From the IMG/VR virus record IMGVR_UViG_3300035390_000055, positions 1 to 40,792 of that record: DNA of 40,792 nt; one strand, written 5' to 3'. Positions 1-39,243 of the stretch are shown in pieces; within the stretch, counting starts at the first letter, position 1, and the number at the start of each line of letters is the position of its first letter. Source of the stretch: a virus. Position numbers and translations under genes: made by a program. Under the pieces are notes generated by a model. That model ran no database searches. It saw nothing but the letters and a program-made list of their open reading frames with translations, and had not been told where the DNA came from.

Positions 1-73
1 TCAATGACTGCGCTCGGAGAAATTCAATGTTAAGTGCTTTCGGACGCGGGTTCGATTCCCGCCGCCTCCACCA
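1..73 (+). ncRNA. ssrA: tmRNA (ssrA) 3' end, partial
   Basis: The sequence ends in a T-arm (GGACGCGGGTTCGATTCCCG) followed by an acceptor strand and an encoded CCTCCACCA. This is the usual 3' end of bacterial tmRNA. The upstream part of the gene lies outside the window. A tRNA is less likely because no variable arm or anticodon arm fits upstream and the CUCCACCA end is typical of tmRNA. The prophage has integrated here and rebuilt the 3' end, so tmRNA stays functional. The opposite strand is read as the last codons of the integrase. Confidence 0.78.
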
Positions 74-1776
74 ACCTTTCCCCCGTCCAAACTTTCGGGT
101 TTGGACGGGGTGTTTATTTCAAGTGGCTCCTGGGAAGATTTATTCTTCCTGGGGGCCTTTGTTTTTTTGTAGAAGTCATCACGGCTGATAGTTACCGGGT
201 GAGTCATAAGCGGGCTACCATCAGGGTTTGAGTGCCTTTGAACAAATGAATTTCTGAAGTACTTCTCGTATCCGCAAGAAGATTTGTCGCCATTATTGTC
301 ATCGTCGCTTGGCCCCGGATCCACCTTCAAAATAACATTGATGTTGTCTTTATTTATAACGACTTCCTGAATGAAAGTCTCGACTACGCTACGAACCTGG
401 TCAAATTTTCCGCTGCTTAAAGCATCCCTGGCTCGCAAAAGGCCCTCTATGATATCGTGACGGCTCATATCTTTTGCGGAATTGGATTGATTTAAGTAGT
501 CGATTCGCGTGTTTATATCGTCGAGTTTTTGTTTCAGCGTGTTTGTTTTTCTTGCAAGTACTTTCTTGTCGATAAGGTCCTCGAAGTATAAGTCGAAGGC
601 CTTGTCGATTTTTTTATTTAAAGAAGTAGCTTCTGATGTAAGCCTCTTCATTTCTGAGTCGAATTTTGAGTTTCTGTCTTCAAGCTTGGTAATTAGATTA
701 AGTGCTAGCTTCATGACAGAAACATCACTGAAGAAGATCTCCTTCAATTTGTCTATGACGAATTCTTCGATGGGAACTTTTCGAACGGCAGTATTTATAC
801 ACTCGCTCTTTTTCGATGTTCGGCCAACGCATGCATAGGTATAGTAGCGTTTGCCTCCTCGCCCTGGTTTGGCTCCGTTTCCGGAATAAGCATAACCACA
901 TTCGCCGCAGCGTATCAAACCGATGAGAAGATATCTGCGGTCATCGGTATCAATTCGTGGTCTCCTGGTTCTCGATTTTATACGATTAGTAACCTTCTCA
1001 AAGGATTCCTTGTCGATAATTGATGGCAATGCATCCTCCAAGCGCACCTCTTTGCTGCTACCTTTAGCAAAGATATATGTTCCAATATATTTCTCATTGA
1101 GAAGGACATCACGGATAGAGTTCTTCCGGAACGCTCGGCCTGCCTTTGTAGAGAAGCCCATTTCATTGAGTTTTTCGGCTATAAGACCATATCCATGCCC
1201 TGTAATGAAAAGTTCGTATATTTTGTGTACAGCTTCAGCCTCCGGTTCTTTAATAACATAGGATCCTTCAGCGTTAACATCGAAGCCAAGGGGTGGCACG
1301 CCTCCGTTGTGTTTTGCTTTCAAGGCGTTTTCCTTCATTCCCTTGTGGACCTCACGGGAAAGGTTCTTCGAGTAATACTCGTTCATGCCTTCTAGGACAC
1401 TTTCAAGGATTATGGATTCTGGAGAATCGTCAAGGCGTTCAAGGATAGAGACAACTCTGACCCCTGCATCCCTGAGCTTTTTCTTATAGATTGCAGAGTC
1501 ATATCGGTTCCTGGCAAAGCGGTCAAGCTTATGAACAAGTACAACATCGAATTTATCCTTTGATGCATCAGCTATCATGTCCAGAAAACGTGCTCTGTCG
1601 TCACTGGTGCCCGAAACAGCCTCATCAATGTACGTGCTCGTCAAAGTATAGCCTTCCTTAGAACAGAAGCATTTAATGGCCCTCAGTTGCGCGTCAATGG
1701 ATTCTTCGCGTTGGTTGTCAGAAGAATAGCGGCAGTATGCAACTGCACGTATTATTTTTGTCGGATGGTTTTTCAT
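1..1776 (-). CDS. Large serine recombinase (phage integrase)
   Basis: This 591-residue protein cuts and joins attP and attB through a serine-DNA link. The N-terminal resolvase domain (about residues 8-155) has the YCRYSS motif, with Ser18 as likely nucleophile. It is followed by the recombinase domain (GVPPLGFDV near 160-240), a zinc ribbon starting CGECG, and a coiled coil near 355-420. The start has a strong AGGAGG site. The last 19 codons lie in antisense tmRNA, so this C-terminus exists only in the integrated state. After excision the frame would end in PNITIPPSNKTGK, giving about 585 residues. The promoter carries a LexA-type box. Confidence 0.95.
   Translation of the reverse strand: MKNHPTKIIRAVAYCRYSSDNQREESIDAQLRAIKCFCSKEGYTLTSTYIDEAVSGTSDDRARFLDMIADASKDKFDVVLVHKLDRFARNRYDSAIYKKKLRDAGVRVVSILERLDDSPESIILESVLEGMNEYYSKNLSREVHKGMKENALKAKHNGGVPPLGFDVNAEGSYVIKEPEAEAVHKIYELFITGHGYGLIAEKLNEMGFSTKAGRAFRKNSIRDVLLNEKYIGTYIFAKGSSKEVRLEDALPSIIDKESFEKVTNRIKSRTRRPRIDTDDRRYLLIGLIRCGECGYAYSGNGAKPGRGGKRYYTYACVGRTSKKSECINTAVRKVPIEEFVIDKLKEIFFSDVSVMKLALNLITKLEDRNSKFDSEMKRLTSEATSLNKKIDKAFDLYFEDLIDKKVLARKTNTLKQKLDDINTRIDYLNQSNSAKDMSRHDIIEGLLRARDALSSGKFDQVRSVVETFIQEVVINKDNINVILKVDPGPSDDDNNGDKSSCGYEKYFRNSFVQRHSNPDGSPLMTHPVTISRDDFYKKTKAPRKNKSSQEPLEINTPSKPESLDGGKVGGGGGNRTRVRKHLTLNFSERSH
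61..73. other. attL core (13-bp identity with attR)
   Basis: The 13 bases GCCGCCTCCACCA are identical at 61-73 and 36789-36801, with ATTC also shared three bases further upstream. The left copy is joined to tmRNA sequence and the right copy to phage sequence, as expected for integration in the tmRNA acceptor stem. The bases on either side (60 and 74 against 36788 and 36802) differ, so 13 bp is the full uninterrupted identity. The enclosed prophage is about 36.7 kb. Confidence 0.82.
81..119 (+). terminator. Phage-supplied terminator for tmRNA
   Basis: A perfect 12-bp stem (CCCCGTCCAAAC at 81-92 with its complement at 99-110), a 6-base loop and then TGTTTATTT form a strong intrinsic terminator eight bases after the tmRNA 3' end. 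It lies on the phage side of attL, so the prophage provides termination for ssrA after separating the gene from its own terminator. It is also inside the integrase reading frame on the opposite strand, where no U-run follows the hairpin. Confidence 0.8.
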
Positions 1777-1796
1777 GAAATCGCCTCCTATGAATA

Positions 1797-1826
1797 ATTA
1801 TAGAACAATTGTTCGATATAAAGCAA
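1797..1826 (-). promoter_or_regulatory. Integrase promoter with LexA-type box
   Basis: On the minus strand a perfect TATAAT (1797-1802) lies 18 bases after TTGCTT (1821-1826). The spacer contains the 12-bp palindrome GAACAATTGTTC (1803-1814), read on this strand as CGAACAATTGTTCT. It matches the GAAC-N4-GTTC core of the Bacillus/Clostridium LexA (DinR) box. This position would let LexA block RNA polymerase. Integrase expression, and so excision, would then follow DNA damage. Confidence 0.6.
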
Positions 1827-1923
1827 ATGTATTATATATAAGTGAACTCGTACTAGTAAGAATGTGAATATATTTATATTATAAAATATACCTATAATAC
1901 GAAAAGAAATGAATGGATACAAC

Positions 1924-1986
1924 GATACGTTCACAATAAATGATAAAACGTACACAAAAACAAGCGAAACGTTCTTGATTATAAGC
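1924..1986 (+). repeat. Three 21-bp-phased direct repeats (operator candidate)
   Basis: Three tandem 21-base units start at 1924, 1945 and 1966. Each has ACGTTC or ACGTAC at the same place (1927, 1948, 1969), followed by an AT-rich half with partial similarity. The exact two-turn spacing puts the motifs on one DNA face. The third unit overlaps the -35 of the ATPase-protease promoter. The layout suggests cooperative binding of a regulator, possibly the helix-turn-helix at the C-terminus of the ATPase itself. Confidence 0.6.
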
Positions 1987-2003
1987 ATAAAGTATATTAT
2001 AAT
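1975..2003 (+). promoter_or_regulatory. Promoter of the ATPase-subtilase operon
   Basis: TTGATT (1975-1980), a 17-base spacer and a perfect TATAAT (1998-2003) form a strong vegetative promoter. Transcription should start near 2010, leaving a leader of only about 12 bases that carries the GAGGTG ribosome site of the ATPase gene. The third phased repeat overlaps the -35. Confidence 0.65.
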
Positions 2004-2021
2004 TTACTCGAGGTGAAAATA

Positions 2022-3146
2022 ATGAAATATTCAATTGAAATTGGAAAAATTATCGAAGGTGCATTCAAACACGATAGCGAAAAAGTTAAAGCCTACAGTA
2101 AACAATTAATTAATAAGCTTAAAGAAGATGGTGATATTAGGACAGCGAATAAAATGGATCGGATACTTAAAATGCAGACGGCACATAATCTCACAGCTAT
2201 GAATGAAAAAATTTTTAAGAATATCCCAGTGGATTCTGAATCAAGAACATTATTAGCCGATATTATATATCCATATGAAATGACAGTGGATGTAGCATTA
2301 TCAAAAAATAGTAGAGACCAAATCGATGACTTTATATTGAATTACCAAAATGCAGACAAATTGAATGAAGCTGGAATTGGTGTATCCAATACATTGTTGC
2401 TATATGGGCCTCCAGGATGTGGGAAAACGAGAAGTGCATATTTAATTGCTGAAAAATTAAATCTCCCGCTAGTGACAGCAAGACTTGATAGCATTATTTC
2501 TTCTTACTTAGGAACTACAGCGAAAAACATTAGAACGTTATTTGAGTATATTCAAAAGATGCCATGCGTGTTATTCCTTGATGAATTCGATGCGATTGCA
2601 AAAGCTAGAGATGACAGTAATGAATTAGGAGAACTAAAGAGAGTTGTAAACAGTTTGCTTCAGAATATTGACTCTCTAAGTGATGATAGTCTAATGGTGG
2701 CAGCTACAAATCATGACCAATTATTGGATAATGCTGTTTGGCGTAGATTTGACTATAAGATTACTATTGAACTACCTGATGTTGAAGCTATAAAAGGGTT
2801 GATAGAAATATTTTTAGGGAACACATTTGAATTAGATGAAAAAATAAAATATGAATTGGCCTATGCATTTGAAGGTTTGAGTGGAGCTACTATTGAAGAG
2901 ATTATTAAAAAGGCAATGCGAAATTCAATAATTCATAATAGAGAATTTTCTTATCGCTTAATCTACAATGAGTTTTTTATTAATAGAAAATTGTTTTCAG
3001 ACAATGAATTTATTGATAAAAAAATCTTAATTGATAGAGCAAGGTATTTAAGAACATGCAATGAAAAAATTTTTAGTTATTCAAAGATTGGAGATATTTT
3101 AGGAGTTTCTAAAAGTCATGTTTCTAACATACTAAAGGGGGATTAA
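2022..3146 (+). CDS. AAA+ ATPase with C-terminal helix-turn-helix
   Basis: This 374-residue protein has a full AAA+ core. Walker A is GPPGCGKT (129-136), Walker B is VLFLDEFDA with Asp187-Glu188, sensor 1 is in VAATNHD, and NAVWRRFDY supplies an arginine finger. The N-terminal 120 residues are helical and of unknown role. The C-terminal end (about 350-374, KIGDILGVSKSHVSNILKG) looks like a DNA-binding helix-turn-helix, which is unusual on a FtsH/spastin-like ATPase. The gene is AT-rich compared with the structural genes and sits three bases before a subtilase gene. Such ATPase-protease pairs occur on mobile elements and are suspected defence or conflict systems. ATG2022 was chosen for its spacing from GAGGTG. 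Confidence 0.88.
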   Translation: MKYSIEIGKIIEGAFKHDSEKVKAYSKQLINKLKEDGDIRTANKMDRILKMQTAHNLTAMNEKIFKNIPVDSESRTLLADIIYPYEMTVDVALSKNSRDQIDDFILNYQNADKLNEAGIGVSNTLLLYGPPGCGKTRSAYLIAEKLNLPLVTARLDSIISSYLGTTAKNIRTLFEYIQKMPCVLFLDEFDAIAKARDDSNELGELKRVVNSLLQNIDSLSDDSLMVAATNHDQLLDNAVWRRFDYKITIELPDVEAIKGLIEIFLGNTFELDEKIKYELAYAFEGLSGATIEEIIKKAMRNSIIHNREFSYRLIYNEFFINRKLFSDNEFIDKKILIDRARYLRTCNEKIFSYSKIGDILGVSKSHVSNILKGD

Positions 3147-3149
3147 AAT

Positions 3150-5426
3150 ATGGGTAAAAGGAATCTACCGATTAAAGTTATTTTGCCAAGAACCAGCGAT
3201 AATGTTCCAAATAAGGCGGGCGGGAAATTAAAATATTTTGGAGAAGTGACTGGAGAATTACAAAATTCAATAATAGATCAATTCGAAGAAGTATTTAACT
3301 ATTATGAAGAAGTTTTTATCGAAAGTGAGAACGTACCGGTTGTAGGAAAGATTTATGTTAAAGAGGAGGCCATAGCAAAATCATATAAACCTAATGATTT
3401 ATGTAGAAATTGCCCGATAATTGGAACTGGTCAATTAGATGAATTGTATGTAAAATTAACGTCGAGGAATATTCATGAAACTATTGAAATTATTAAGACG
3501 CTACCATCGCAAAGAGTCAAAGCTAATCTTACAGCATTGCGTGAAGTCAGTCCTTTTGTTCCAGAGGATAAAATTTCAAAACAATTAATTGCAGTAACGG
3601 AAAACAATAAATTTTCGGAGGTCAAAGAAAAAATAAAGATAAAGATTTTTGATTTTGATAATGAATACGACAATGAAATAATACATAATTATGTTAAAAA
3701 TAAGATTCAAGAAATGGAATTGGATTCGGATATTAAATATATTAAGTATGGTGAAAAGATTGAATATATAAAAATAAGGGTTGAATCTGTTGAAGATATA
3801 AATAAATTGGCTAAAGTTAATGGCATTAAAACAATCGATTTTTTTCAAGAATATTCAATGCCAATAAATAGTCAAAACGGAACTGATTTTGGGCGCGTTG
3901 AGGAAAGAGAGTTTCAACAAAGTGATGAAATTATTGGGATAATTGATGGGGGAATTAGTCCAAGTAATAAATATTTAAACCCTTACATAGTGGCGAGAGA
4001 AACTTATGTTCCTTCTGAATACCAGAATCATAGTCATGGTACTTTTATTGCGTCTACAATTCAGTATGGGGATTATTTAAATGGCATAAGTGGAAATAAT
4101 AAAAGTTTTAATTTCCTAGATGTAGTAGCTATTCCAAACAGTGATCCGAAAATTGGTCCAGTGGACAGTATTGGTGAAATTCAGCTTATGGAAATAATTG
4201 AAGACGTTATGGGGAAATATTCGAAAAAGGTAAAGATATGGAATATTTCACTAGGCATGCAATCAATTGTGAGTGATGGAAAAACAATGTCTGACTTAGG
4301 AGTTTTCTTAGATTATATTCAGCACGAATATGATGTGCAGTTTATCGTTTCTAGCGGGAATATTGAAAAACCACCACTGAGAACTTGGCCTCCACAAGAG
4401 AATTATGGAGAGCATGATAGAATAATTTCACCGGCTGATTCTGTTAGGGCAATTACTGTTGGATCCCTAGCATATAGAGATTCTGATATCTCAATAGTGA
4501 ATAAAGATGAACCTTCACCGTTTAGCAGAAGAGGCCCTGGTGTTAATTTCATTGTCAAACCAGATTTAGTTGATTATGGCGGGAATATTGATTGTAAATA
4601 TTGTGTAAATGGACTTGGGATGATAGGAATGGATATCCATGGAAATGCGGTAGAAGGGATAGGAACTAGTTATTCTGCTCCACGTGTGGCAAGGAAAGTT
4701 GCTTGCATTCATGATGAACTAGTCGAAAAAAATAAATTGTTGGCAAAGGCTTTAACTATTCATTCAGCTAGATTGAAATCAAGAGAATTAATTAACAGCG
4801 ATAACGATTTAGTTAAGTATTATGGTTTTGGTATGCCCTCGATTGATTCCAATGAGTGTTTAAAATGTAATAGTAGTGAAGTGACCATGATTTTTAAGCA
4901 GAAGCTTGTACATGGTACGCATCTTGAAATGTATTCATTCCCATACCCTAAATCGCTGATTAAAAATGGCAAGTACATAGGGGAAATATGTATGACATTG
5001 GCTTATGATCCTTTATTAGATGAACGATATGGACAAGAATATTGTAGAGCAAATATTGATGCTTCATTTGGTACATATAATTTAACAGAAAAAGGAATTG
5101 ATTTTCATGGGCAAGTGCCAGTGGAAAAAACATGGGATGGGAATTTTGAAAAAGCCAAAGTAGAAAATGGCTTTAAATGGAGTCCTATTAAATCATATTA
5201 TAGAAAGTTACCAAGAGGTATTAATGTATCGGATGGTTGGAAACTTCGCCTTGATATGTACGCTAGAAATGGCACGTTTATTGAAGAAATGGAATTTGTG
5301 CTTATTGTGACAATAAAAGATCCTAATAATAATGATATATATTCGGAAATAATAAATGGATTAAGAGAAAATGGTTATATTACAAATAATTTAGAATTAA
5401 GACACCAAATAAGACCACGGATATAG
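3150..5426 (+). CDS. Subtilisin-like (S8) serine protease, partner of the ATPase
   Basis: This 758-residue protein has a complete S8 triad: Asp266 in IIGIIDGGI, His296 in HSHGTFIAS and Ser507 in GTSYSAPRVA, with oxyanion Asn404 in SSGN. No signal peptide is visible, so it should act in the cytoplasm. The 260 residues before the catalytic domain and 230 after it match no family I recognise; CRNCPIIGTG near residue 85 is notable. The ATPase may unfold or present substrates, or may hold the protease inactive until a trigger. The gene is AT-rich, co-transcribed with the ATPase and not needed for a phage cycle, so it is probably cargo. Confidence 0.87.
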   Translation: MGKRNLPIKVILPRTSDNVPNKAGGKLKYFGEVTGELQNSIIDQFEEVFNYYEEVFIESENVPVVGKIYVKEEAIAKSYKPNDLCRNCPIIGTGQLDELYVKLTSRNIHETIEIIKTLPSQRVKANLTALREVSPFVPEDKISKQLIAVTENNKFSEVKEKIKIKIFDFDNEYDNEIIHNYVKNKIQEMELDSDIKYIKYGEKIEYIKIRVESVEDINKLAKVNGIKTIDFFQEYSMPINSQNGTDFGRVEEREFQQSDEIIGIIDGGISPSNKYLNPYIVARETYVPSEYQNHSHGTFIASTIQYGDYLNGISGNNKSFNFLDVVAIPNSDPKIGPVDSIGEIQLMEIIEDVMGKYSKKVKIWNISLGMQSIVSDGKTMSDLGVFLDYIQHEYDVQFIVSSGNIEKPPLRTWPPQENYGEHDRIISPADSVRAITVGSLAYRDSDISIVNKDEPSPFSRRGPGVNFIVKPDLVDYGGNIDCKYCVNGLGMIGMDIHGNAVEGIGTSYSAPRVARKVACIHDELVEKNKLLAKALTIHSARLKSRELINSDNDLVKYYGFGMPSIDSNECLKCNSSEVTMIFKQKLVHGTHLEMYSFPYPKSLIKNGKYIGEICMTLAYDPLLDERYGQEYCRANIDASFGTYNLTEKGIDFHGQVPVEKTWDGNFEKAKVENGFKWSPIKSYYRKLPRGINVSDGWKLRLDMYARNGTFIEEMEFVLIVTIKDPNNNDIYSEIINGLRENGYITNNLELRHQIRPRI

Positions 5427-5440
5427 TCGTGATGATATAT

Positions 5441-5956
5441 TTATAAATTTTTGTATAGACACACATTCGGAAAACTTGACAGCACCAAAGCAAGATTGTC
5501 ATTGACTTGAATTACAGAATTCTTCAATGATAAAAATCGCAGTTTTTCATGAAGAATTTTTTTAGAGACATGCAGCCTTTTAGAAACATCATTCAGTGTA
5601 TCGGTAGAATTCTTTATACATGAAATTAGTTCTTCCGTGGGTACAAGTGTATCGCAAGTCCAACGGAGAGCATCCTCTTCGATTTTACTGAGATGAATTC
5701 GATTAGCAATGTGATATAAAGGTCCTACAAAGTCTCCAACAGATGTAAAATGATGACCAAGTTCTTCGGCGAGGACTATCATAAGCTGGTCCTCGTCGTT
5801 TTGTATTTTTGAGTTGATTCCTATTATAGGCCCGGTTTCTTTGGAGGAAAAGTAAACACCAAAAATAGGATCCACTAAAGGGAAATAGTTGATTGTAATG
5901 TTTTCTACATCTGCAATATCGTATAGTTGTTTGAGTTTTGGATTCAATGGTTTCAC
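5441..5956 (-). CDS. ImmA/IrrE-type metallopeptidase
   Basis: This 171-residue protein has the motif LAEELGHHFTSVGD (residues 62-75), a form of the HExxH zinc site found in DUF955/ImmA proteins, followed by the family's EEDALRW helix. The canonical first histidine is a glutamate here, and an extra histidine follows the second one. In phages and ICEs this peptidase cleaves the neighbouring repressor after an SOS signal. It is the last gene of the leftward lysogeny operon, so repressor inactivation is the likely job. Confidence 0.85.
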   Translation of the reverse strand: MKPLNPKLKQLYDIADVENITINYFPLVDPIFGVYFSSKETGPIIGINSKIQNDEDQLMIVLAEELGHHFTSVGDFVGPLYHIANRIHLSKIEEDALRWTCDTLVPTEELISCIKNSTDTLNDVSKRLHVSKKILHEKLRFLSLKNSVIQVNDNLALVLSSFPNVCLYKNL

Positions 5957-17799: not shown

Positions 17800-19035
17800 T
17801 TGCCATACGACAACAATCCAAGAATAAATGACGGTGCGGTAGAAAACGTTCTCAAGTCAATAAGTGAATTTGGGTTCAAGGTACCAATAGTACTAGATAA
17901 GGATTATGTGATTGTTACAGGGCATGTGAGGTACAAGGCTGCTAGACAGATGGGGCTTAAAAAGGTTCCATGCATTGTTGCAAGCGACCTGACAGAAGAG
18001 CAGATTAAGGCATATAGACTGGCAGACAATAAGACGGCTGAGTACGCCGAGTGGGATATGGAGAAGTTGGAACAGGAGCTGATGGCTTTGTCGGAGATAG
18101 GCTTCGATATTGAGAAGTTTGACTTTCAACTAAAGGATATTGCATCAGACGATGACTTCGACTTTGAAAGTGCTATTGAATCGATCGAGGAACCGGTGAC
18201 CAAAAGCGGGGATATATGGCTTCTGGGTAGACACAGGTTGCTATGTGGAGACAGCACATGCAAGAAAGCATATGAGAGACTGATGAATGGAATGCAGGCA
18301 GGCCTAATCATAACGGATCCGCCGTACAATGTTGATTACACAGGCGGAACTAAGCAGAAAATGAAAATCATGAACGATAGCATGCCCGATGATGTATTCC
18401 AGGAATTCTTGAAAGAAGCTCATTCGAGAATGCACGAAGCGCTTGAACCGGGAGCTCCGATATACGTGTTCCATGCAGACAGCGAGGGAAACAGCTTCAG
18501 GACAGCGTTCACGAGTGCAGGCTTTAAGCTTTCGCAATGTCTCATATGGGTTAAGCAATCCATGGTGCTTGGACGTCAGGACTACCATTGGCGCCATGAG
18601 CCGATACTGTACGGTTGGAAGAAGGGTGCCGCGCACAAGTGGTACGGAGACCGCTGTAATGATACCGTCATAGACGAAGAAAAGATAGTTTTCAGCAAGG
18701 CAAAGAAAGAGGACCTAATAGAGATAATCAAGGATATGCAGCAAAAAATATATTTGAATTCAACTATCATCTATCAAGACAGACCAACTTCAAATGCCGA
18801 TCATCCGACTATGAAGCCGGTGAAACTGATTGGCAAGCTTATGGATAATTCTTCAGAGCGAGGCACATTGGTTCTGGATCCTTTCGGGGGAAGTGGTAGC
18901 ACGCTGATTGCTTCCGAACAGATGGGAAGAACCTGCAACACAATGGAGCTTGATCCTAAATACTGCGATGTAATCGTTCGCAGGTGGGAGGAATGCACGA
19001 GCCAAAAGGCGGAGAGGATACATGGCCAAGCATAA
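17800..19035 (+). CDS. ParB-like nuclease domain fused to DNA methyltransferase
   Basis: The first 100 residues are a ParB-like domain (VTGHVRYKAARQMG) and the rest is a beta-class amino methyltransferase, with DPPY motif (IITDPPYNVDY) before the SAM-binding DPFGGSGST motif. It probably makes N6-methyladenine or N4-methylcytosine to protect phage DNA or mark packaging sites. The family's first strand (REIDIDEILPYDNNPRIN) begins upstream of the first usual start, TTG17800. The true start may be a non-standard ATT (17755) overlapping the previous gene. Confidence 0.88.
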   Translation: MPYDNNPRINDGAVENVLKSISEFGFKVPIVLDKDYVIVTGHVRYKAARQMGLKKVPCIVASDLTEEQIKAYRLADNKTAEYAEWDMEKLEQELMALSEIGFDIEKFDFQLKDIASDDDFDFESAIESIEEPVTKSGDIWLLGRHRLLCGDSTCKKAYERLMNGMQAGLIITDPPYNVDYTGGTKQKMKIMNDSMPDDVFQEFLKEAHSRMHEALEPGAPIYVFHADSEGNSFRTAFTSAGFKLSQCLIWVKQSMVLGRQDYHWRHEPILYGWKKGAAHKWYGDRCNDTVIDEEKIVFSKAKKEDLIEIIKDMQQKIYLNSTIIYQDRPTSNADHPTMKPVKLIGKLMDNSSERGTLVLDPFGGSGSTLIASEQMGRTCNTMELDPKYCDVIVRRWEECTSQKAERIHGQA

Positions 19036-37310: not shown

Positions 37311-38438
37311 ATGAAAAAGATAATACCACTCGTTATGATATTTGTTCTGCTTTTGGGAGCAGCAGCTTATGTGGAACAGGATGAAACATTAGTGCCAGAA
37401 GTAAATGAAATTAATGAAAAGAAGTATTTTAATGAGTTTTCAAAAATGACAAGTGAAAAGCAGCTTGATAAATATATGGAAAAGCTAGATATAAAAGAAG
37501 CTTTATCAATGATTGCCGAGTGTGCTGAAGAGTTTGATAAGTCAGGAGAATACACGCAGATGGTAGTATTCTCAGAGTATATTAACAAGAATTTGATTTA
37601 TAAAATTCCAGAAAATGTTTATATAAAAGTTTTGGATAATCCAGAATACAGCAAAGCATTTAAGATGTGTATGATTGATATTTACACATCTTTAGGAAAC
37701 GATGGAATGAGCATTAAAAAATTCGATGAAATTATGAGGCGAATAATTAAAGACAAAAATGAAGATTTATCATTGCGTTCTTATGCGTTAGCAAACATGA
37801 AAAATATGAATTCAAATGATATTGAAATGCTAATGAATATAATTAATTCTGAGGAAGAAAGTAATAGGTTAAAAGTTACAAGTTTAAAACAACTTAGTAG
37901 AATTGATAAGAGTGCAGTTTATCCGATCGTTAAGAATATTGTAAAAAAATCAGATCAATACGCGATTGAAGAAGTTAAAATGGCGATGTCTATATTATCT
38001 AGAATCACAGATGAACTGAATGTTCAAAACGAAGAAAATATCATTAATGACATTAATGATATAGCTTACATGATTGAGAACTCAGATGATGCCTTTGTTA
38101 TACGTACTGCTGTAAGTTGTTTAGGAAATATAAAGAATAAAAACACCATGAAAGTGGTTATTAAGCATAGAGATAAAATAAAAGAGGATAGTACCATTGT
38201 TCATTTTGTTAATAAAAGTTATTTGACAATTGAAAAGACGTTAGATTTATCGAATGATACTGATATTATTAAATTGGCTTTTGAATATGTTGATATAGCT
38301 CCATACAAGAGTTTTGCAACAAAACTAAAAGTATTATCAGAGAATCATGAAGACTTGGAGATTAGAAATCAGGCTAAGGCACTTATTGAGAAAATAAATG
38401 TAAATACATATGAAAGAAATACTAGGTGGGATGACTAG
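37311..38438 (+). CDS. Secreted helical-repeat protein (HEAT-like)
   Basis: The 375-residue protein starts with a signal peptide (residues 2-20, IIPLVMIFVLLLGAAAYV). The rest is made of pairs of helices with conserved Leu spacing (SLRSYALANMKNM, RTAVSCLGNIKNK), like HEAT repeats. It is lysine- and asparagine-rich. Function unknown; a surface scaffold is plausible. Confidence 0.72.
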   Translation: MKKIIPLVMIFVLLLGAAAYVEQDETLVPEVNEINEKKYFNEFSKMTSEKQLDKYMEKLDIKEALSMIAECAEEFDKSGEYTQMVVFSEYINKNLIYKIPENVYIKVLDNPEYSKAFKMCMIDIYTSLGNDGMSIKKFDEIMRRIIKDKNEDLSLRSYALANMKNMNSNDIEMLMNIINSEEESNRLKVTSLKQLSRIDKSAVYPIVKNIVKKSDQYAIEEVKMAMSILSRITDELNVQNEENIINDINDIAYMIENSDDAFVIRTAVSCLGNIKNKNTMKVVIKHRDKIKEDSTIVHFVNKSYLTIEKTLDLSNDTDIIKLAFEYVDIAPYKSFATKLKVLSENHEDLEIRNQAKALIEKINVNTYERNTRWDD

Positions 38439-38517
38439 AACAAAGTAAAAAGGTGGCTTTTAAAATGAAAAAATATTCTTAGTTGTTGTAATTGTAGTCC
38501 TAAGTAGTGTTATTTTT

Positions 38518-39243
38518 GTGGGCTGTGATCAACCCACAGAATATTCGGGAAAATTTGATGGGATTCCTATATATCCAGGCATGGAGCTGGCAAGTGATTC
38601 TGAAGTTGAAGAAAGGTATGAAATGATAGAATTTGAAGGTGCCTTTCAAGACGTGATTGATTATTACTTAAATCATATTGATCGTAAAAAATGGTCTGTT
38701 GAAGAAAATTTTCTGTATTGGAACGAGGAAAATCCTCCTAAGTGGAGTCGAAGATATATTCTGACGGATGGACAAGAAGATGTTGCTCTTATGATAAATG
38801 TATGGAAAACGAATGATGAACTAGGCAGATTGTATGTTTATCTAAATGGTTCACCACTCAAGGAAGGAAAATATAGTGCTGAAGGACAAAGTGAGCATTG
38901 GAAAGCATCGGTAGAATATATCCTCGGAAAAGATAAAATATTGATTAATGGAGAAGCAACATATATAGGGGATGAGCTTCCAACTGCAGTAGACGTTGTT
39001 TTTTTAGTATATGAAATGAATTTTAGTCCGCCTTTTGAAGGCAGGGTAGTGGGAGAAGCTTCAACTAGAGAAACGTTAAGCCAACCTGTAGAGGATTCAA
39101 TGATTAAAATTTCCGATTCTGACGATAGAACTTATCAATTTGAAATCTATAAAGAAGCAATCGATAATGCATACATTGTACTTACAGGGGAAGAGCAAGG
39201 GGAAGATAAAATTGAAATAGTTGATATTACAGTTGTGCCATAG
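38518..39243 (+). CDS. Lipoprotein broken by a signal-peptide frameshift
   Basis: The open frame starts at GTG38518, at the lipobox region (VGCDQP), and codes for a 240-residue extracytoplasmic protein with beta-rich C-terminus. Directly upstream the same frame reads LVVVIVVLSSVIF, a lipoprotein signal core. The best start, ATG38465 with AAAGGTGG, is out of frame by one base. Adding one A to the run AAAAAA (38468-38473) would give MKKIFLVVVIVVLSSVIFVG. Phase variation, pseudogene or a sequencing error are all possible. Confidence 0.7.
   Translation: MGCDQPTEYSGKFDGIPIYPGMELASDSEVEERYEMIEFEGAFQDVIDYYLNHIDRKKWSVEENFLYWNEENPPKWSRRYILTDGQEDVALMINVWKTNDELGRLYVYLNGSPLKEGKYSAEGQSEHWKASVEYILGKDKILINGEATYIGDELPTAVDVVFLVYEMNFSPPFEGRVVGEASTRETLSQPVEDSMIKISDSDDRTYQFEIYKEAIDNAYIVLTGEEQGEDKIEIVDITVVP

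What the first reader, a model, noticed from the sequence alone, without database searches (positions are those of the whole stretch)
2022..5426. AAA+ ATPase with a DNA-binding tail paired with a cytoplasmic subtilase
Seen: both enzymes have complete active-site motifs, lie in one operon, lack secretion signals and are AT-rich cargo beside the integrase. The ATPase ends in a helix-turn-helix. Known: ATPase-subtilase gene pairs occur on mobile elements and are suspected conflict systems. Inferred: the ATPase gates the protease, and DNA binding either controls the operon or senses phage DNA.
Basis: partly seen in the sequence, partly recalled or inferred. Interest (0 to 1): 0.75.

Follow-up and report, generated by a model that had tools for sequence, protein, structure and literature searches.

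The report
Prophage IetAS pair with repeat operator
A virus integrated in a bacterial chromosome carries a known two-gene toxin-antitoxin and anti-phage pair (an ATPase that restrains a cell-killing protease). The new part is that the ATPase of most members of this family has a DNA-reading tail, and its own promoter is covered by short repeats spaced every two turns of the DNA helix, which differ in step with the tail.

Summary
ORF 2022-3146 is an AAA+ ATPase with a C-terminal helix-turn-helix (HTH). ORF 3150-5426 is a subtilase with an intact D266/H296/N404/S507 site. Both sit beside the serine integrase of a prophage inserted in the tmRNA gene. The pair is not an unnamed conflict system: it is IetAS (PADLOC IetA E=5.5e-141, IetS E=3.9e-253), also described as a toxin-antitoxin system (pTiC58, SgiAT, Mycoplasma). 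Pairing is near universal (133 of 138 IetA loci with room; all 61 IetS loci checked).

I found no report of the following. In 123 dereplicated ietA upstream regions, 6-mers recur at lags of 20-21, 41-42 and 62-63 bp; 948 control upstream regions do not show this. In close relatives the copies keep a fixed register to the promoter. The repeat word follows the HTH class (STGK gives TGTTCA in bacteria, archaea and a planctomycete). IetA forms without the HTH lack arrays. The window has three copies (1927, 1948, 1969) abutting the -35 box.

Best reading: the antitoxin ATPase also represses its own operon through its HTH on a helically phased operator. This is inferred from sequence. Phage-DNA sensing by the tail is not supported.

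The parts
1927..1932 (+). repeat copy 1 (ACGTTC) of the operator array
   Evidence: 21-bp spaced array found by chain search, shuffle p 0.017; position -48 from the -35 hexamer, the same register as in relatives
1948..1953 (+). repeat copy 2 (ACGTAC)
   Evidence: register -27
1969..1974 (+). repeat copy 3 (ACGTTC), abuts the -35 hexamer
   Evidence: register -6
1975..2003 (+). promoter TTGATT-N17-TATAAT of the operon
   Evidence: best-scoring plus-strand site of the region, 10 of 12; the scan as a whole is near chance, but relatives show TTTACA-N17-TATAAT at the same place
2022..3146 (+). ietA: AAA+ ATPase, 374 aa, antitoxin/regulator
   Evidence: PADLOC IetA 5.5e-141; NCBIfam IteA 484 bits, below the cut-off of 510; Pfam AAA 4e-32
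3018..3137 (+). C-terminal helix-turn-helix of IetA (residues 333-372)
   Evidence: AlphaFold2 model helices 333-346, 353-360, 364-372; tail present in 127 of 128 aligned co-directional IetA proteins
3150..5426 (+). ietS: S8 subtilase, 758 aa, protease toxin
   Evidence: PADLOC IetS 3.9e-253; Peptidase_S8 1.1e-26; catalytic residues invariant; model pLDDT 89.4, pTM 0.91
3633..3842 (+). IetS residues 162-231: beta-alpha-beta-beta-alpha-beta module directly before the catalytic domain, like a subtilisin pro-domain
   Evidence: secondary structure of the model; best Foldseek match is ProN-Tk-SP, a subtilase solved with its N-propeptide; identity with a pro-domain is inferred
1..1776 (-). large serine integrase of the prophage (mobile context)
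   Evidence: its 3' end runs into a tmRNA 3' end at 1-73

Best explanation
This is a prophage-borne IetAS toxin-antitoxin / anti-phage module. IetA (AAA+ ATPase) keeps the cytoplasmic protease IetS harmless; loss or inactivation of IetA, for instance during phage takeover, frees IetS, which kills the cell or stops infection. IetA is also the operon's own regulator: its C-terminal HTH binds a direct-repeat operator (here ACGTTC / ACGTAC / ACGTTC, 21 bp apart) that ends at the -35 box, so an IetA oligomer lies along one face of the DNA and shuts its promoter. Shown here: the genes, their pairing, the HTH, the arrays, their register with the promoter, their covariation with HTH class, and their absence beside HTH-less IetA. 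Shown by others on homologues: subtilase toxicity and its neutralisation by the ATPase. Inferred: IetA binding to the repeats, repression, the trigger, and the protease's substrates.
For: Family. Pairing: 133 of 138 IetA loci with room; all 61 IetS loci with room, 57 upstream co-directional and 4 convergent. Toxin/antitoxin roles: PMC5006074, PMC8562856; prophage carriage with phage resistance: PMC11878078. HTH. Arrays: 6-mer recurrence of 0.92 / 1.64 per region at lags 20 / 21 and 0.71 / 1.04 at 41 / 42, against 0.05 / 0.15 and 0.06 / 0.08 in 948 controls. Chain scores exceed the control 95th percentile in 69 of 123 regions. Register: in the close group copies lie at -69, -48, -27, -6 and +14 from the -35 hexamer; -6 occurs in 18 of 26, +14/+15 in 16 of 26. 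HTH-motif link: six IetA with an S(T/M)GK/Y recognition helix, mostly 36-54% identical to each other (one pair 65%), all have TGTTCA arrays; one of them (L444) was found from the DNA motif alone. Partial Mantel motif~HTH given core: r 0.185, p 0.0005. HTH-less IetA: 0 of 13 with arrays against 9 of 21 with an HTH, Fisher 0.006.
Against: No binding or expression data exist. The motif also tracks the ATPase core independently of the HTH (partial r 0.32), so shared descent explains part of the link. HTH-less loci are mostly one clade with higher GC. Only 7 of 26 upstream regions of IetA below 40% identity show arrays. In the window the copy inside the promoter spacer is missing, so activation cannot be excluded. 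Three-copy patterns in viral contigs are mostly unrelated to ietA. NCBIfam equivalog cut-offs are not reached.
Confidence: 0.8

Rival explanations
1. The IetA tail senses invading phage DNA: the HTH binds sites on phage genomes or replication intermediates, and this binding releases the protease.
For: An HTH is present in nearly all co-directional IetA and its recognition helix varies strongly, as expected of a sensor in an arms race.
Against: The repeat word matched to each HTH class lies on the operon's own promoter in fixed register. HTH-less IetA still form pairs. The motif is not enriched elsewhere in this phage (11 matches, 6.3 expected).
Confidence: 0.06
2. The repeats bind another factor (host regulator or phage repressor) or are a promoter enhancer; IetA does not contact them.
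For: No binding experiment exists; the motif also correlates with the ATPase core. SgiAT was reported to need positive activation (PMC5006074).
Against: The same HTH class carries the same repeat in hosts as different as archaea, Bacteroidota and a planctomycete, which are unlikely to share a regulator; arrays are absent beside HTH-less IetA.
Confidence: 0.1
3. The array is a centromere- or incompatibility-like site: IetA on phased repeats pairs or counts copies of the element, and extra copies titrate IetA and free IetS.
For: Iterated direct repeats on a promoter resemble plasmid partition sites; the founding iet locus determines stability and incompatibility of pTiC58 (title of Yamamoto 2009 as cited in PMC8562856); IetA relatives occur on 558 plasmid records.
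Against: No partition protein is in the operon; a titration role is not exclusive of repression and is untested.
Confidence: 0.1
4. Ordinary unrelated neighbours: a housekeeping ATPase and a degradative protease that happen to be adjacent.
For: AAA+ and S8 families are large and common (general knowledge; Pfam matches).
Against: Pairing in 133 of 138 and 61 of 61 loci over many phyla; full-length matches to IetA/IetS models.
Confidence: 0.01

Closest known systems
IetAS anti-phage system (PADLOC IetA/IetS; NCBIfam IteA NF042959 / IteS NF042956)
   Same: Both proteins full length, same gene order, same domains, mobile context
   Different: Scores below NCBI's equivalog cut-offs, so outside the strict named equivalogs; HTH tail and repeat operator are not part of any description I could read
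SgiAT of Salmonella Genomic Island 1 (PMC5006074)
   Same: ATPase antitoxin followed by subtilase toxin on an integrative element
   Different: Different element; no repeat operator is described there; the report found expression needed positive activation
Mycoplasma TA132/133 (PMC8562856)
   Same: AAA-ATPase antitoxin plus subtilisin-like toxin of nearly the same sizes (353 and 757 aa)
   Different: Chromosomal in Mycoplasma; described only as a toxin-antitoxin system
Pf phage PfAC08 IetAS (OR818368; PMC11878078)
   Same: IetAS carried by a prophage, associated with phage resistance
   Different: Filamentous Pseudomonas phage; HTH of another class with GCAACA repeats about 10 bp apart
Type II toxin-antitoxin autoregulation
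   Same: Antitoxin carries a DNA-binding domain that controls its own promoter (inferred here)
   Different: Antitoxin is an AAA+ ATPase; operator is a row of direct repeats 20-21 bp apart, not palindromes

Membership tests
IetAS | AAA+ ATPase of the IetA family | tested here: met
   PADLOC PDLC02196 5.5e-141 over residues 1-372
IetAS | S8 subtilase of the IetS family with catalytic residues | tested here: met
   PDLC02197 3.9e-253 over residues 1-755; D266, H296, N404, S507 invariant
IetAS | adjacent co-directional genes, ietA first | tested here: met
   3 bp gap; 133 of 138 loci alike
NCBIfam strict equivalogs IteA / IteS | equivalog score cut-offs (IteA 510, IteS 900 bits) | tested here: not met
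   484.2 and 549.4 bits; hence a family member, not NCBI's strict equivalog
IetAS | protease toxic alone, neutralised by the ATPase | not testable with these tools
   shown for homologues only (PMC5006074, PMC8562856)
IetAS | protects against phage | not testable with these tools
   association reported for a prophage-borne homologue (PMC11878078)
Type II toxin-antitoxin autoregulation | antitoxin has a DNA-binding domain | tested here: met
   HTH at 333-372 by sequence and fold; DNA binding itself not tested
Type II toxin-antitoxin autoregulation | operator on its own promoter | tested here: inconclusive
   phased repeats in promoter register; binding not tested
AAA+ protease machines (FtsH, Lon) | ATPase and protease in one chain | tested here: not met
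   separate ORFs; protease is S8

The most novel reading that the evidence does not exclude
The IetA family is an AAA+ antitoxin that reads a helically phased direct-repeat array (period 20-21 bp, two turns), with repeat word and recognition helix co-diversifying across bacteria and archaea. The IetA-on-array complex is the switch: it represses the operon, and titration or loss of the array-bound oligomer (by a rival element with the same repeats, or by phage takeover) releases the protease, joining the incompatibility and anti-phage phenotypes in one mechanism.
Probability: 0.25. Interest if true: 0.75.

Novelty: new member of a known kind. Interest (0 to 1): 0.5.

Why it matters
A 2025 paper states that the IetAS mechanism is unknown (PMC11878078). 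The operator arrays give the ATPase's tail a concrete, testable target, predict which IetA reads which repeat, and suggest how one module can give plasmid incompatibility, element stability and phage defence. The tail-less and convergent forms provide natural controls.

Tried and rejected
A count of repeated 7-mers per region without spacing was too noisy in AT-rich DNA (16 of 132 at p<=0.05) and was replaced by lag and chain statistics. Scanning viral contigs for three spaced copies of three motifs gave mostly coding heptads and other repeats and one ietA locus, so arrays alone do not identify the system. An IetS-anchored viral scan found nothing. Decay asymmetry (IetS split or short in 12 of 121 IetA loci, IetA broken in 0 of 30 IetS loci) points the antitoxin way but is not significant (p 0.125). 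A read-through IetA-IetS model folded both parts well but pTM 0.69 is close to what two undocked parts would give, so it is no evidence for a complex. Proteins related by sequence to IetS are absent from the PDB. Yamamoto 2009 (the pTiC58 iet paper) is not held, so an earlier mention of these repeats there cannot be excluded. Gao 2020 (first report of IetAS defence) is known to me from memory only. The Ti plasmid and Mycoplasma loci were not fetched.

Full report
What was claimed and what is there. The ATPase and subtilase ORFs, their motifs, the HTH tail, the operon layout, the low GC and the neighbouring serine integrase are all present at the stated coordinates. The window is a whole IMG/VR virus record. 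Its first 73 bases are the 3' end of a tmRNA gene (Rfam RF00023, 62.6 bits), so this is a prophage in ssrA with a tailed-phage gene set (terminase, major head protein, tape measure).

Identity. PADLOC names the pair IetA/IetS with full-length matches, and PHROGs holds both as phage families of unknown function (phrog_3757, phrog_3964). NCBI's equivalog models match over the full length but under their cut-offs. Homologues have been shown to be a toxin-antitoxin pair in SGI1 and in Mycoplasma, with the subtilase as toxin, and IetAS on a Pf prophage is associated with phage resistance, mechanism unknown.

Pairing. Of 142 loci (141 fetched with the IetA protein plus the window itself), 133 have the subtilase directly downstream, 4 are cut by the contig end, 4 lack it and 1 is convergent. 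Starting from IetS in about 1,550 genomes of four classes gave 63 loci; one had no room and one a broken IetS. All 61 others have IetA: 57 upstream and co-directional, 4 convergent, and those four IetA lack the HTH.

The operator arrays. Reading upstream regions of the close relatives showed repeated TCGTTC. Over 123 dereplicated upstream regions the number of identical 6-mer pairs peaks sharply at lags 20-21, 41-42, 62-63 and 82-84 bp and is flat elsewhere; 948 upstream regions of other genes in the same loci show no such peaks. A spaced-chain score exceeds the control 95th percentile in 69 of 123 regions, the 99th in 50, and every control in 16. The Mann-Whitney p value treats related loci as independent and should not be read literally. 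Arrays are common in IetA at least 40% identical to this one (65 of 97 by shuffle test) and rarer below that (7 of 26).

Register. In the close group the copies stand at -69, -48, -27, -6 and +14 relative to the first base of a TTTACA-N17-TATAAT promoter. One copy therefore abuts the -35 box and one lies in the spacer next to the -10. The window keeps -48, -27 and -6 (1927-1932, 1948-1953, 1969-1974) before TTGATT-N17-TATAAT. An oligomer bound there would be expected to occlude RNA polymerase; repression is therefore more likely than activation, but this is inference.

Who reads the array. The repeat word changes with the recognition helix: SKTT/SKSH with TCGTTC/ACGTTC, CHHNTI with TGGATA, RQVRN with ATTACGTT, STGK with TGTTCA, KSTVSR with TGCAACGA, RPTIKK with TGGTAAA. 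The best case is STGK. Six proteins, mostly 36-54% identical to each other (L444 and L546 are 65%), from a planctomycete, two archaea, two bacterial genomes and a viral contig all have TGTTCA arrays. L444 was found by searching for the DNA pattern alone, and its tail proved to be STGK. Motif similarity correlates with HTH similarity after removing core similarity (r 0.185, p 0.0005), but also with the core after removing the HTH (r 0.32), so descent contributes. IetA forms that stop before the HTH have no arrays (0 of 13 against 9 of 21, Fisher 0.006), although these loci are mainly one higher-GC group. A tail-less Rhizobium plasmid member also lacks repeats.

Structure. IetS is predicted with high confidence (pLDDT 89.4, pTM 0.91). 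A beta-alpha-beta-beta-alpha-beta module precedes the catalytic domain and a beta-rich domain follows; the best PDB match is a Thermococcus subtilase solved with its N-propeptide. A built-in pro-domain is thus likely, which would make IetS a zymogen-like enzyme; whether it is cleaved is unknown. IetA is predicted as an N-terminal three-helix bundle, AAA+ core and trihelical HTH.

How it most likely works. IetA restrains IetS and represses the operon from the phased repeats; when IetA is lost, IetS acts. The restraint is shown for homologues; the repression is inferred from sequence; the trigger and the substrates are unknown. Sensing of phage DNA by the tail has no support here.

Novelty. The pair is a known kind. 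The repeat operator, its helical phasing and its match to the HTH class are, in the papers I could search, undescribed; the founding pTiC58 paper could not be read.

Noticed in passing
window 1-73: 3' end of a tmRNA gene; the serine integrase ORF runs into it, so the prophage sits in ssrA and the integrase C-terminus overlaps the attachment region.
   Followed up: partly
L513, L552, L554, L555: Convergent IetA/IetS pairs whose IetA lacks the HTH tail: a separate layout of the family.
   Followed up: partly
L559 (OR818368) 216-3526: Record notes swap the names: the ATPase is labelled IetS and the peptidase IetA.
   Followed up: no
L103, L108, L124, L500, L543, L559: Another array layout: direct repeats 10-11 bp apart (one helical turn), for example TGTCCAA or GCAACA, upstream of ietA.
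   Followed up: no
window 37311-39243: Two AT-rich ORFs (GC about 0.28-0.33) near the right end with no Pfam or PADLOC match: possible second cargo block.
   Followed up: partly
window 17800-19035: ParB-like domain fused to a DNA methyltransferase (phrog_498, 4.8e-155).
   Followed up: no
window 5441-5956: Reverse-strand metallo-protease-like protein (phrog_87) directly after ietS, followed by an unknown protein with a CxxC..CxxC start and phage repressor genes.
   Followed up: partly
L003, L018, L020, L050, L065, L089, L106, L135, L140: Serine recombinases within a few kb of ietAS in other hosts: an integrase-side cargo position recurs.
   Followed up: partly
window 1799-1815: Palindrome GAACAATTGTTC upstream of the integrase gene, possible control site.
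   Followed up: no
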